Shown: positions 41,498-60,086 of the stretch, one piece after another
How the letters are laid out: the number at the start of each line of letters is the position of its first letter
Numbering within the stretch: position 1 is the stretch's first letter
Assembly: GCA_016214035.1 (NCBI GenBank)
Contig: JACRPF010000006.1
Location: 145,458 to 209,457 of the forward strand
DNA: 64,000 nt
Reading direction: 5' to 3'
From: Spirochaetota bacterium
GTDB taxonomy: Bacteria; Spirochaetota; Brachyspiria; Brachyspirales; JACRPF01
Program-made: the position numbers and the translations under genes
The notes under the pieces: model-generated
The model's database searches: none
Told to the model about the DNA's origin: nothing
What the model saw: only the letters and a program-made list of their open reading frames with translations

Positions 41498-41782
41498 TCA
41501 GACTTCATCAAAGACACGGTGTATGCGCTCATACACCGTGTCACCGGCGTCATCGGCCACGGTAACACTCCGCACATCGACGAGCTTTTTTATCTGTTTG
41601 ACGATTTGCGTAAGTCTTCCGTCATGTGCCACGAGTATATACATCCTGCTGAGTGTCTCATCGATGGGGGCGCAGGCGATGGCCTCCATGTTGTACGCAC
41701 GTCGTGAAAAAAGTCCCGTCACATGCGACATGACCCCCGGATGATTCCTGACATCTATTTTAAGCAGTGCGCGGTTATTCAT
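41498..41782 (-). CDS. ilvN: Acetolactate synthase small regulatory subunit
   Basis: A 94-residue single ACT-domain protein like E. coli IlvN (96 residues), shorter than the two-domain IlvH type. It opens RALLKIDVRNHPGVMSHVTGLF, the effector-binding ACT motif, and continues with RRAYNMEAIA. It binds valine for feedback inhibition and stimulates the catalytic subunit. Its ATG overlaps the ilvB stop by 4 bases (ATGA). The 3' end of the reading frame contains a perfect 13-bp inverted repeat, listed separately. The transcript is controlled by the valine-rich attenuator 1.9 kb upstream. Confidence 0.93.
   Translation of the reverse strand: MNNRALLKIDVRNHPGVMSHVTGLFSRRAYNMEAIACAPIDETLSRMYILVAHDGRLTQIVKQIKKLVDVRSVTVADDAGDTVYERIHRVFDEV
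41513..41542 (-). repeat. Perfect 13-bp hairpin inside the ilvN 3' coding end
   Basis: GACACGGTGTATG, 4-base loop, CATACACCGTGTC. It encodes DTVYERIHRV of IlvN and ends 15 bases before the stop codon. There is no U-tract after it, so it is not an ordinary terminator. It may stabilise or process the mRNA between ilvN and birA. Confidence 0.85.
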
Positions 41783-43428
41783 AGTTCAGCTCCTATCATC
41801 TCATGATTCGCTTTACCCGGCGGCACGATCGGGTACACGTTCGCATCGGCGGGTATCGCCACGTCGATGAAGAGTGGCGCTTTCCCCGCGCTGTTCGACC
41901 GCAGCACATCGGCTATCGTTTCAGGCGTTGCACGCATCGCCGTTATGCCGAAACCGCGCGCGATGGTGACGAAATCGGGGTTCTTCTGAAACCGTGACGC
42001 AATATACCGCTTGCCGAAAAACAGTTCCTGCTGCTGACGCACCAGTCCCAGATGACCGTTGTTGAAAAGTATTATCGTCACCGGCAGATTGAGTTCCGCA
42101 AGCGTTGCAAGCTCCTGTATGTTCATGAGTATCGATCCGTCGCCGCTCATGCAGCAGACAGGTGTATCGGGATTGACAAGCGATGCGCCTATCGCCGCGG
42201 GCAGACCGAAGCCCATGGTTCCGAGGCCGCCCGACGTGAGCAGTTGCCGGGGACGCACGCAGTTCCACGTCTGCGCCGTCCACATCTGATGCTGCCCCAC
42301 GTCGGTGGTGACAATAACATTGTCGCCGAAATAGGACTGTGCCGCGGCGACCACATGCGCCGGATGCGTGTCGCTCACGGTGAGCGGCGGATGCATCGAT
42401 TTCAGTTCGGCGATACGCGCGCGCCAGGCGCTTCGTTTATTTTCCGTAATATGCGGCAGAAGAAGTTTCAGCGTCTGTGAAACATCGGCCACGATATGCA
42501 TATCCGTGGCCCGTATCTTCCCTATCTCCGCGTCGTCGATATCCACATGTATCACGGACGCATCGGGACAGAATGCGTCGCTGCGCCCTGTCGCCCGGTC
42601 ATCAAAACGGGCACCGAGCACGATGAGAAGATCAGTCTCTTTTGACAGATGATTCGTGGCGCTTTTGCCATGCATGCCGAGCATACCGAGATCGAGCGCG
42701 TCACCTGAAGGAAAAACACCGGCACCCATGAGCGTATGCACCGCCGGTATGCCGTTGCGATGCGCAAGCTCCCGGATGAGCTCCGACGCGCCGTTGTGTA
42801 TGCATCCTCCGCCGATGTACAGCAGCGGACGTTTCGCCGCAGTAATCATGGATGCGATGGTACGCAGTGACTGTTCATCGGGAGCCGGTTTCGCATCAAT
42901 GGCCGAACGCTCCGGAAAAGCGTCAACGCTCACCGGCGACAGCTGCACGTCCTTGGGGATATCCACGAGCACCGGCCCCTGCCTCCCCGATGCCGCAATA
43001 CGAAACGCCTCGGGAATAACCTCAAGCAGTTCCGACGCCGAACGCACCAGAAAATTATGCTTGGTTATCGGTATCGTCATGCCGTAGATGTCTATCTCCT
43101 GAAACGCATCGGTGCCGATCAGTGCTGTCGACACCTGTCCTGTTATCGCCACAATGGGCACCGAATCCATCTTCGCGTCTGCCAATGCGGTGATGAGATT
43201 CGTCGCGCCCGGACCCGATGTTGCAAAGCACACCGCCGTTTTCCCCGTTGAGCGGGACATCCCCTGTGCGAGAAAGCCCGCTGCCTGTTCATGCCGGACG
43301 AGTATATGGCGTATGCTGCTTGCATATAACGCGTCGTAGAGCGGCAGATTGGTGCCGCCGGGAATACCGGCAATGACCGATATTCCCTCCCGTTCGAGTA
43401 ATCTGATGGTGAGTTCCGCTCCGTTCAT
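41779..43428 (-). CDS. ilvB: Acetolactate synthase large subunit
   Basis: Thiamine-diphosphate enzyme that joins two pyruvates, or pyruvate and 2-ketobutyrate, at the first shared step of branched-chain amino acid synthesis. The start at ATG 43428 has AGGAG six bases upstream, giving MNGAELTIRLLEREG and 549 residues; the track start at 43467 lacks an SD. VRHEQAAGFLAQG carries the cofactor-activating glutamate, and GDGSILMNIQELATLAELN...NN is the thiamine-diphosphate/Mg motif. The FAD-domain block FDDRATGR is also present. It overlaps ilvN by 4 bases. An attenuator and a structured 5' region precede it. Confidence 0.96.
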   Translation of the reverse strand: MNGAELTIRLLEREGISVIAGIPGGTNLPLYDALYASSIRHILVRHEQAAGFLAQGMSRSTGKTAVCFATSGPGATNLITALADAKMDSVPIVAITGQVSTALIGTDAFQEIDIYGMTIPITKHNFLVRSASELLEVIPEAFRIAASGRQGPVLVDIPKDVQLSPVSVDAFPERSAIDAKPAPDEQSLRTIASMITAAKRPLLYIGGGCIHNGASELIRELAHRNGIPAVHTLMGAGVFPSGDALDLGMLGMHGKSATNHLSKETDLLIVLGARFDDRATGRSDAFCPDASVIHVDIDDAEIGKIRATDMHIVADVSQTLKLLLPHITENKRSAWRARIAELKSMHPPLTVSDTHPAHVVAAAQSYFGDNVIVTTDVGQHQMWTAQTWNCVRPRQLLTSGGLGTMGFGLPAAIGASLVNPDTPVCCMSGDGSILMNIQELATLAELNLPVTIILFNNGHLGLVRQQQELFFGKRYIASRFQKNPDFVTIARGFGITAMRATPETIADVLRSNSAGKAPLFIDVAIPADANVYPIVPPGKANHEMIGAEL

Positions 43429-43479
43429 TGATGGCTCCTGTGCATAAATATTTGGTTCTTCTTTCATACATCGTATTTT

Positions 43480-43819: not shown

Positions 43820-43863
43820 CCGGCACTGAAGGCGCGGTCTCGAGACCGCGCCTTCAGTGCCGG
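43820..43863. repeat. 44-bp perfect palindrome (type A)
   Basis: CCGGCACTGAAGGCGCGGTC then TC, mirrored exactly around the centre CTC|GAG. It shares the core AGGCGCGGT-N6-ACCGCGCCT with palindromes at 44102 and 60059. It abuts the ilv promoter on one side and the 21-bp repeat array on the other. Confidence 0.95.
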
Positions 43864-43874
43864 ATTTTATTGAA

Positions 43875-44084
43875 AGACTGACATTCATACTCCTGAGATT
43901 GAAAATCACTCTCCATAGAATGATTTTTACCTTACAGAGACAGGAATTCACTCTCCCAAGATTGATTTCTATCTTCCTGAAAGTGAAAATCACGTAACGG
44001 AGAGTAAATTTCAGTCACCCTAGATTGGAATTCACTCTCCGGAGACTGAATTTCACCTTCCTGAAATTGAATTTCAATCTCCGA
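43875..44084. repeat. Ten contiguous degenerate 21-bp repeats
   Basis: Units begin at 43875, 43896, 43917, 43938, 43959, 43980, 44001, 44022, 44043 and 44064 with no insertion or deletion, and a partial eleventh at 44085. The consensus is about AGATTGAATTTCACTCTCCnn. Each unit contains a small inverted repeat (TTGAA/TTTCAA). On the plus strand the units read as heptads of the type RLxFTLx, but with an in-frame TAA in the sixth unit and a TGA just before the first. No convincing gene is present. The array lies between two related palindromes. Confidence 0.9.
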
Positions 44085-44101
44085 AGATTCCATTGCCAAT
44101 A

Positions 44102-44143
44102 AAAAACCGAAGGCGCGGTCACGTGACCGCGCCTTCGGTTTTT
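44102..44143. terminator. 42-bp perfect palindrome, likely bidirectional terminator
   Basis: AAAAACCGAAGGCGCGGTCA then C, mirrored exactly and ending GGTTTTT. A long GC-rich stem with A-tract and T-tract flanks works as a terminator on both strands. It lies 17 bases after the stop of the helical-protein gene. Its core matches the other two palindromes. Confidence 0.88.
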
Positions 44144-44160: not shown

Positions 44161-44736
44161 CTATTTCATAGCCGCTTTCTTCTTCGACTTCTTGAAATAT
44201 ACCGCCATATCATCGGCAATGGTGCTCAAACCCGATACCTTGTCCTTATGCTGACGAACCGCCGCATACACATCCAATGCCGCAGCCATCGCGTCGCTTT
44301 TGACGGCAACGTGCGTTGACTGAAGCCCTTCCGCAAGCTCATTCGCCATAGCGACGATATCGGCCATATCCTTTGAAAGCTGATAATCCTTTTTGAACTC
44401 CGCAACGTTGAACACGCCCGGCAATATCTCCGGATGTGCCTCAACGGCCTGATGCGCCTTGTCGAGGAACGGTTCAAGCTCCTTTCCGGCCTTGAACAGC
44501 GAGTGCACTTCCGATGCGTCGAGTGAGAGAAGAAACCCGAGCTGACTTTTGATGCCCGAAAGTTTCTGCGTGATCTCCGCCTTGGTTTCAGGCGCGAGCG
44601 TTGCCGATACGAGATTCTGCGTAGCCATTTTCCTGTCCTCCGAAATTATATTATTACTAACGGCAGGCTTTGCAGCCTCCGCTGGTAATTCTGTAGGTGA
44701 TGAAGAAGTTTTTTCTGGTTGCTTGGAATCACTCAT
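44161..44736 (-). CDS. Uncharacterised helical protein with two possible starts
   Basis: A 191-residue, alanine-, lysine- and glutamate-rich protein, predicted mostly helical, with a basic C-terminus (YFKKSKKKAAMK). I do not recognise a named family. ATG 44736 has AAAGGA upstream. An internal ATG at 44628 (MATQNLVSATLAPETK) has a stronger GGAGGACAGGAAA directly before it. The first 36 residues are a low-complexity proline/serine/glutamate linker. Two products from one gene are therefore plausible. It is last in a four-gene minus-strand operon and is followed by the palindromic terminator. Its GC content is closer to the genome norm than that of the three genes before it. Confidence 0.7.
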   Translation of the reverse strand: MSDSKQPEKTSSSPTELPAEAAKPAVSNNIISEDRKMATQNLVSATLAPETKAEITQKLSGIKSQLGFLLSLDASEVHSLFKAGKELEPFLDKAHQAVEAHPEILPGVFNVAEFKKDYQLSKDMADIVAMANELAEGLQSTHVAVKSDAMAAALDVYAAVRQHKDKVSGLSTIADDMAVYFKKSKKKAAMK

Positions 44737-47097: not shown

Positions 47098-47126
47098 GGA
47101 AGGAAGGAAGGAAGGAAGGAAGGAAG
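47098..47126. repeat. GGAA tetranucleotide tract (seven units)
   Basis: GGAA repeated seven times plus one G, without interruption, in the intergenic region between divergent CsgG-like and GGDEF genes. Such tracts mutate by slippage and in known pathogens tune promoters. Apart from this and the GGDEF promoter I find nothing clear in 46962-47315. Confidence 0.92.
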
Positions 47127-60058: not shown

Positions 60059-60086
60059 GCAGGCGCGGTTATATAACCGCGCCTGC
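60059..60086. repeat. 28-bp perfect palindrome (third member of the family)
   Basis: GCAGGCGCGGTTAT|ATAACCGCGCCTGC. It has the same AGGCGCGGT...ACCGCGCCT arms as the palindromes at 43820 and 44102, with centre TATATA. It lies 9 bases after the decarboxylase stop and before the purM promoter; there is no long T-run, so it may be a structural or regulatory element more than a terminator. Confidence 0.93.

What the first reader, a model, noticed from the sequence alone, without database searches (positions are those of the whole stretch)
43820..44143. Composite noncoding element: ten 21-bp repeats bracketed by long perfect palindromes
A 44-bp palindrome, 11 bases, exactly 210 bp of 21-bp units without indels, 17 bases, and a 42-bp palindrome with the same core. 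Units diverge strongly in sequence yet keep exact 21-bp phase (two helical turns), so spacing has been retained. No ORF, tRNA or mobile-element gene explains it. It may be a protein-binding array (nucleoid, partition or recombination site), a structured RNA, or the remnant of a heptad-repeat gene (frames read RLxFTLx).
Basis: seen in the sequence. Interest (0 to 1): 0.75.

Follow-up and report, generated by a model that had tools for sequence, protein, structure and literature searches.

The report
21-bp phased noncoding DNA arrays
The strange stretch is really two things side by side: a pair of copies of a dispersed hairpin-forming repeat of the kind linked to a bacterial transposase, and one of roughly fifty noncoding DNA arrays in this genome whose sequences differ from place to place but which nearly all repeat every 21 base pairs (two turns of the double helix), hinting that spacing rather than sequence is what is kept.

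Summary
It is best read as two repeat classes lying together. (1) The palindromes belong to a dispersed family of perfectly self-complementary hairpins. There are 15 exact cores genome-wide against 0 for a control pattern. They flank and interrupt a REP-associated tyrosine transposase gene elsewhere in the genome, so they are REP/TIR-like, and they covary in the stem. (2) The array is one of about 16 noncoding 21-bp-phased arrays in 1.26 Mb sampled (about 50 per genome). In this genome 21 bp is almost the only minisatellite period; a different genus of the same family has a few, and other samples have none. Unit sequence differs by locus. Some arrays form dispersed families whose copies differ by whole units. 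Copies show no codon-position bias and about three times fewer indels per substitution than non-array repeats, so they are not coding. A 21-bp array also lies downstream of the orthologous gene in the other genus, without the palindromes. I favour a DNA-level array whose helical phase is constrained, probably a platform of protein sites; a neutral 21-bp minisatellite is the main rival.

The parts
43820..43863 (.). Left 44-bp perfect palindrome: core AGGCGCGG-TCTCGAGA-CCGCGCCT with locus-specific self-complementary arms (REP/TIR-like dispersed hairpin)
   Evidence: same core in 15 exact copies genome-wide
43875..44084 (.). Ten 21-bp units without indels; consensus AGAnTGAAaTTCACtCTCCnG, roughly self-complementary about two axes 10.5 bp apart
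44102..44143 (.). Right 42-bp perfect palindrome, core AGGCGCGG-TCACGTGA-CCGCGCCT, with A/T runs on both sides, so it also looks like a bidirectional intrinsic terminator for the gene at 44161-44736
60059..60086 (.). Third copy of the same palindrome family in the window (GCAGGCGCGGTTATATAACCGCGCCTGC), no array beside it
44161..44736 (-). 191-aa protein gene of unknown family; its ortholog in another genus is also followed by a terminator-like hairpin and then a 21-bp-phased array

Best explanation
Two independent repeat classes lie together between a gene and the ilv operon. The palindromes are copies of a dispersed hairpin repeat, REP/TIR-like, spread by or derived from a REP-associated tyrosine transposase (RAYT) in the same genome; the right copy probably doubles as a terminator. 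The 21-bp array is a noncoding, DNA-level minisatellite of a lineage-specific class: arrays arise by tandem amplification at 21 bp, drift freely in sequence, but keep 21-bp (two-turn) spacing because the units work as an array of approximately dyad-symmetric sites on one face of the helix, most likely bound by a dimeric or oligomeric DNA-binding protein with low sequence demand (nucleoid-type or insulator-like). Shown: the exact phase, the genome-wide class, the absence of codon constraint, the relative lack of indels, the palindrome family and its RAYT link. Inferred: the bound protein, the insulating or architectural role, and selection as the cause of the spacing.
For: Period 21 (with 42 and 63) is nearly the only noncoding minisatellite period in 1.26 Mb of this genome by two methods; the few 28-bp hits lie mostly in the same arrays. 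There are a few arrays in another genus of the family, none in 0.38 Mb of the phylum or 0.98 Mb of other bacteria apart from coding heptads and AT-rich or coding artefacts. Unit similarity does not fall with distance in most arrays. Dyad symmetry exceeds column permutation (p<0.05) in the window and in L032, L037, L042, L043, L146, part of L176 and G001 L143. Diverged copies align over 331-372 bp without gaps at 61-66% identity, with no codon-position bias. Mismatches per gap are about 30 in arrays against about 9 in non-array repeats. A 21-bp array (p<0.0005) follows the orthologous gene in G001, without these palindromes. Palindromes: 15 exact cores against 0 for the control, flanking and interrupting a RAYT that passes the NCBIfam equivalog cut-off, with compensatory changes in the stems.
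Against: No binding protein was identified. Unit sequence differs between loci, which is unusual for protein sites. Column-rate heterogeneity exceeds a neutral coalescent clearly only in L030a and G001 L143; in the window p=0.127. Not all arrays are dyad-symmetric (L030, L045, L154, L170a and the young L026 and L158). Arrays sit in convergent, divergent and tandem intergenic gaps alike, so no single regulatory position is evident. Arrays were detected by phase, which favours indel-free ones.
Confidence: 0.42

Rival explanations
1. Neutral minisatellites: this lineage has a mutational process that creates tandem duplications of 21 bp (slippage or a two-turn ruler); arrays then decay with no function.
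For: Young, 85-94% identical arrays with other sequences also have period 21 and no dyad symmetry (L026, L158). Dispersed copies differ by whole numbers of units, allowing for a few 20-bp units. Column variation in several arrays fits a neutral coalescent.
Against: Flat similarity with distance, dyad symmetry in many old arrays, fewer indels per mismatch than in non-array repeats, an array kept beside an orthologous gene in another genus.
Confidence: 0.35
2. Structured noncoding RNA: the array is transcribed and the self-complementary units fold into a long hairpin ended by the palindromic terminator.
For: Window z -4.9 and -6.0 on the two strands; strong folding also in L032, L037, L045.
Against: No within-unit covariation in the window (z -0.2). 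Folding is at background in L026, L030a, L154 and G001 L211. Both strands fold alike, as any palindromic array must. No Rfam match.
Confidence: 0.1
3. Remnant of a gene encoding a heptad-repeat protein (21 bp = 7 codons).
For: 21 is 7 codons; some dispersed copies read as heptads such as VYVQHIP over tens of codons; a coding-looking heptad array does exist in another bacterium (L103).
Against: Mismatches between copies are roughly even over codon positions (20/25/18, 34/31/48, 57/41/47, 36/47/45). 20-bp units break the frame. Stops in every frame of most arrays, including the window. No intact homologous gene was seen in the sampled sequence.
Confidence: 0.05
4. One mobile composite: a non-autonomous element in which two REP/TIR hairpins mobilise the array between them, like a minisatellite-bearing MITE.
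For: Two hairpins bracket the array at 11 and 17 bp; another array has one hairpin about 40 bp away (L005/L037). Minisatellite-bearing MITEs are known (PMC4596501).
Against: Both loci were the starting point or were found through the palindrome, so the association is ascertained. Of the other palindrome copies examined, none but L005 has an array nearby. The array next to the orthologous gene lacks these palindromes. No second copy of the bracketed unit exists in the genome.
Confidence: 0.08

Closest known systems
BrickBuilt, a MITE carrying a 23-nt minisatellite, Porphyromonas gingivalis (PMC4596501)
   Same: Short tandem units of about two helical turns without spacers, strictly intergenic, 19 copies in one genome, leader/tail ends, often beside predicted terminators
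   Different: One sequence family with 23-nt units; here 21 bp with different sequences at most loci. Terminal inverted repeats were not found for most arrays here
REP elements and TIR-type repeats flanking RAYT/TIRYT genes (PMC2817692, PMC3733652)
   Same: Dispersed extragenic palindromes, stems kept by compensatory changes, flanking a REP-associated tyrosine transposase gene; wholly self-complementary TIRs and dimers are described
   Different: No GTAG or CGTC tag at nearly all copies examined; perfect loopless palindromes with locus-specific arms; only about 15 exact cores; applies to the brackets, not to the array
Overabundant intergenic heptameric repeats (Xanthomonas, Nostoc; PMC4692102)
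   Same: Genome-wide preference for one intergenic repeat length, sequence and length vary between relatives
   Different: 7-nt near-identical G-rich units; here 21-bp degenerate units
Helically phased operator pairs such as ArgR boxes (recalled, not tested)
   Same: Palindromic sites about 21 bp centre to centre, two helical turns
   Different: Pairs rather than 10-30 units, and one shared consensus; here the sequence changes from locus to locus

Membership tests
REP (GTAG/CGTC-tagged) | Short palindrome in many extragenic copies | tested here: inconclusive
   15 exact 24-bp cores (control 0), plus diverged ones; low copy number for REPs
REP (GTAG/CGTC-tagged) | GTAG or CGTC tag at one end | tested here: not met
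   Flanks of the copies listed; a GTAG beside only one (L248)
TIR-type repeats of RAYT/TIRYT genes | Copies flank a REP-associated tyrosine transposase gene | tested here: met
   Gene L245 1408-2007, NF047646 83.7 bits over cut-off 80, palindromes on both sides and inside
TIR-type repeats of RAYT/TIRYT genes | Mobilised by that transposase | not testable with these tools
   No strain pair with empty sites; the RAYT ORF itself carries a palindrome, and its HUH motif reads HVY by eye
Minisatellite-bearing MITE (BrickBuilt type) | Tandem units of about 21-23 nt, intergenic | tested here: met
Minisatellite-bearing MITE (BrickBuilt type) | Leader and tail with terminal inverted repeats and many copies of the same element | tested here: not met
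   The window element is single-copy in the genome; one other array family has shared ends but no terminal inverted repeat was identified
CRISPR array | Near-identical repeats separated by unique spacers | tested here: not met
   Contiguous 21-bp units 57-74% alike, no spacers; cas genes not sought
Heptad-repeat protein gene | Open frame and codon-position bias of substitutions | tested here: not met
Structured RNA | Compensatory covariation in stems | tested here: not met
   Window array z -0.2; weakly positive in some other arrays
Phased operator array of one regulator | One consensus shared by all sites | tested here: not met
   Unit consensus differs between loci

The most novel reading that the evidence does not exclude
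A class of bacterial DNA element defined by spacing, not sequence: dozens of intergenic arrays per genome, each with its own roughly palindromic motif, all locked to 21 bp and kept nearly free of indels, read by a protein that recognises helical phase and dyad symmetry rather than a fixed sequence.
Probability: 0.25. Interest if true: 0.85.

Novelty: new variant of a known kind. Interest (0 to 1): 0.58.

Why it matters
Repeat finders and family databases look for shared sequence, so an element class that shares only its period would be missed; here it was visible only by autocorrelation. If spacing is under selection, it gives a direct, testable case of DNA selected for helical phase in bacteria. 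If not, it shows a lineage with a sharply tuned 21-bp duplication process, which is itself unexplained.

Tried and rejected
Rfam at gathering thresholds: nothing. Whole-element DNA search in the own genome and 60 relatives found only the palindromes elsewhere; the two weak array matches in distant genomes lie in sequence without 21-bp phase. Heptad gene rejected by codon-position counts and stops. Conserved RNA stem in the window rejected by column shuffling. One-composite-element idea weakened and by G001. Promoter-proximal regulatory array rejected as a general rule, because arrays also lie between convergent genes. A first intergenic-masking attempt removed nearly all noncoding DNA and is not used. 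Orthologous loci of L154 and L170 in G001 showed no array. The named-genome scan did not show the organism; from genome sizes and kinship I suspect Spirochaetota near Brachyspira, not tested.

Full report
OBSERVATION. The description is accurate to the base. Left palindrome 43820-43863, 11 bp, ten 21-bp units at 43875-44084, 17 bp, right palindrome 44102-44143. The combined 21/42/63 autocorrelation over 126 bp is 0.60 against 0.26-0.38 for other lags and 0.30 +/- 0.016 in shuffles. The best non-integer period is 21.0. There is no Rfam match and no convincing ORF.

THE PALINDROMES. Only nine perfect palindromes of 26 bp or more occur in 1.26 Mb sampled, two of them here. The core AGGCGCGG-n7-8-CCGCGCCT occurs 15 times in the genome against 0 for the reversed control pattern. 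The central bases differ between copies (ATATATAT, TCTCGAGA, TCACGTGA, TTATATAA, TGATATCA) but remain self-complementary in nearly all. The arms outside the core are locus-specific and yet mirror each other. This is strong covariation, as expected of a hairpin. The genome has three Y1-transposase genes. One passes the NCBIfam cut-off for REP-associated tyrosine transposase and has these palindromes upstream, downstream and inside its reading frame. REP-associated transposase genes flanked by REPs, or by self-complementary TIRs that also form dimers, are described (PMC2817692, PMC3733652). The usual GTAG/CGTC tag is absent at nearly all copies, so I call these REP/TIR-like rather than REPs. The right copy has T runs in both directions and lies just after the gene at 44161-44736 (-), so it probably also terminates transcription (inference).

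THE ARRAY IS ONE OF MANY. Other loci brought in by the palindrome search also held 21-bp arrays of quite different sequence. I then sampled 1.264 Mb of the genome. Regions with high self-identity cluster at 21 bp: 20 at lag 21 against 0-5 at any other lag from 15 to 33, and the five at 28 lie mostly in the same arrays. Tandem Repeats Finder, an independent method, gives the same: nearly every array with period 9 or more is 21 or close to a multiple of it. After removing coding repeats there are 15 noncoding loci (16 arrays): the window, L026, L028, L030 (two), L032, L037, L042, L043, L045, L146, L149, L154, L158, L170, L176. Four were in stretches chosen because an array was known there; the other eleven, in about 1.14 Mb, suggest about 50 per genome. 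Another genus of the family (G001, 0.70 Mb) has a few (L143, L200, L211). Samples of the phylum (0.38 Mb) and of other bacteria (0.98 Mb) gave only coding heptads and composition artefacts.

ANATOMY OF THE ARRAYS. Units within an array are mostly about 45-65% alike (85-94% in the young arrays L026 and L158), and in most arrays similarity does not fall with distance. Many, not all, are self-complementary about axes 10.5 bp apart: p<0.05 against column permutation in the window and in L032, L037, L042, L043, L146, part of L176 and G001 L143, but not in L030, L045, L154, L170a or the young arrays. Within the window there is no excess covariation inside units, so the sequence consensus rather than pairing is what is shared. 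L028, L032, L149, L176, L233, L236 and L237 are related copies of one dispersed family; six of them share a right end, and they differ by whole units, allowing for a few 20-bp units. Between copies, mismatches are roughly even over codon positions. Long stretches align without gaps at 61-66% identity, and mismatches per gap are about 30, against about 9 in non-array dispersed repeats of the same genome. That argues against coding and for constraint on length, but the non-array control is small, and finding arrays by their phase is itself a bias towards indel-free ones.

CONSERVATION. The 191-aa gene beside the window array has an ortholog in G001 (28% over 122 aa, E 7e-12; a CsgG-like neighbour is shared, 38%). 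It too is followed by a terminator-like hairpin and then by a 21-bp-phased array (p<0.0005, lag 21 the best lag), without the REP/TIR-like palindromes. So array and palindromes can part company. Two other loci tested showed no array in G001.

INTERPRETATION. The brackets are most likely ordinary members of a transposase-linked hairpin family. The array belongs to a lineage-specific class with one period and many sequences. Either spacing is selected (a helically phased platform of protein sites), or the lineage duplicates DNA in 21-bp steps and the arrays decay neutrally. Column-rate tests do not settle it: the window departs from a star phylogeny (p=0.001) but not from a coalescent (p=0.127), while L030a and G001 L143 depart from both. 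I put 0.42 on the first and 0.35 on the second. RNA folding is strong in the window (z -4.9 and -6.0) but at background in several arrays.

COMPARISON. BrickBuilt of P. gingivalis (PMC4596501) is the closest described thing: a 23-nt minisatellite in an intergenic MITE. It has one sequence family, unlike this. Literature searches found no report of a sequence-diverse 21-bp class; the library is open-access only.

Noticed in passing
window 43756-43688 (-) and 43664-43633 (-): Probable branched-chain amino acid leader peptide MRQTTTHIAETVSVVKVAVVVV* followed by a terminator, upstream of the acetolactate synthase gene 41779-43467 (-): looks like a classical attenuator.
   Followed up: partly
L028 675-1020; L032 13334-14004; L149 17561-18308; L176 8142-8516; L233; L236; L237: Dispersed family of long 21-bp arrays, most with a shared right end GGAATATTTTTGTTGTTTTGG, and unit-number differences; the longest copy has about 32 units in near-perfect register.
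   Followed up: partly
L245 1754-1803: A 50-bp near-perfect palindrome of the bracket family sits inside the reading frame of the REP-associated transposase without breaking it.
   Followed up: partly
G000 C6 about 8430 and 10101 (L247, L248), C9, C12, C18, C20, C22: Copies of the palindrome carry arms unique to each locus yet perfectly mirrored, as if the flank had been copied into an inverted repeat.
   Followed up: no
L149 16135-16172; L154 5181-5206; L166 16356-16399: A second family of perfect palindromes with core GGAGCATGCTCC.
   Followed up: no
L158 14754-15100: Young 21-bp array (about 94% identical units) directly upstream of a Mutator-type transposase gene.
   Followed up: no
L154 3441-3671; window 43875-44084; G001 L143 3835-4044: Units two apart are more alike than neighbours, a weak 42-bp higher-order alternation.
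   Followed up: no
window 47098-47126: GGAA tetranucleotide repeat, 7.2 copies, upstream of a CsgG-like gene.
   Followed up: no
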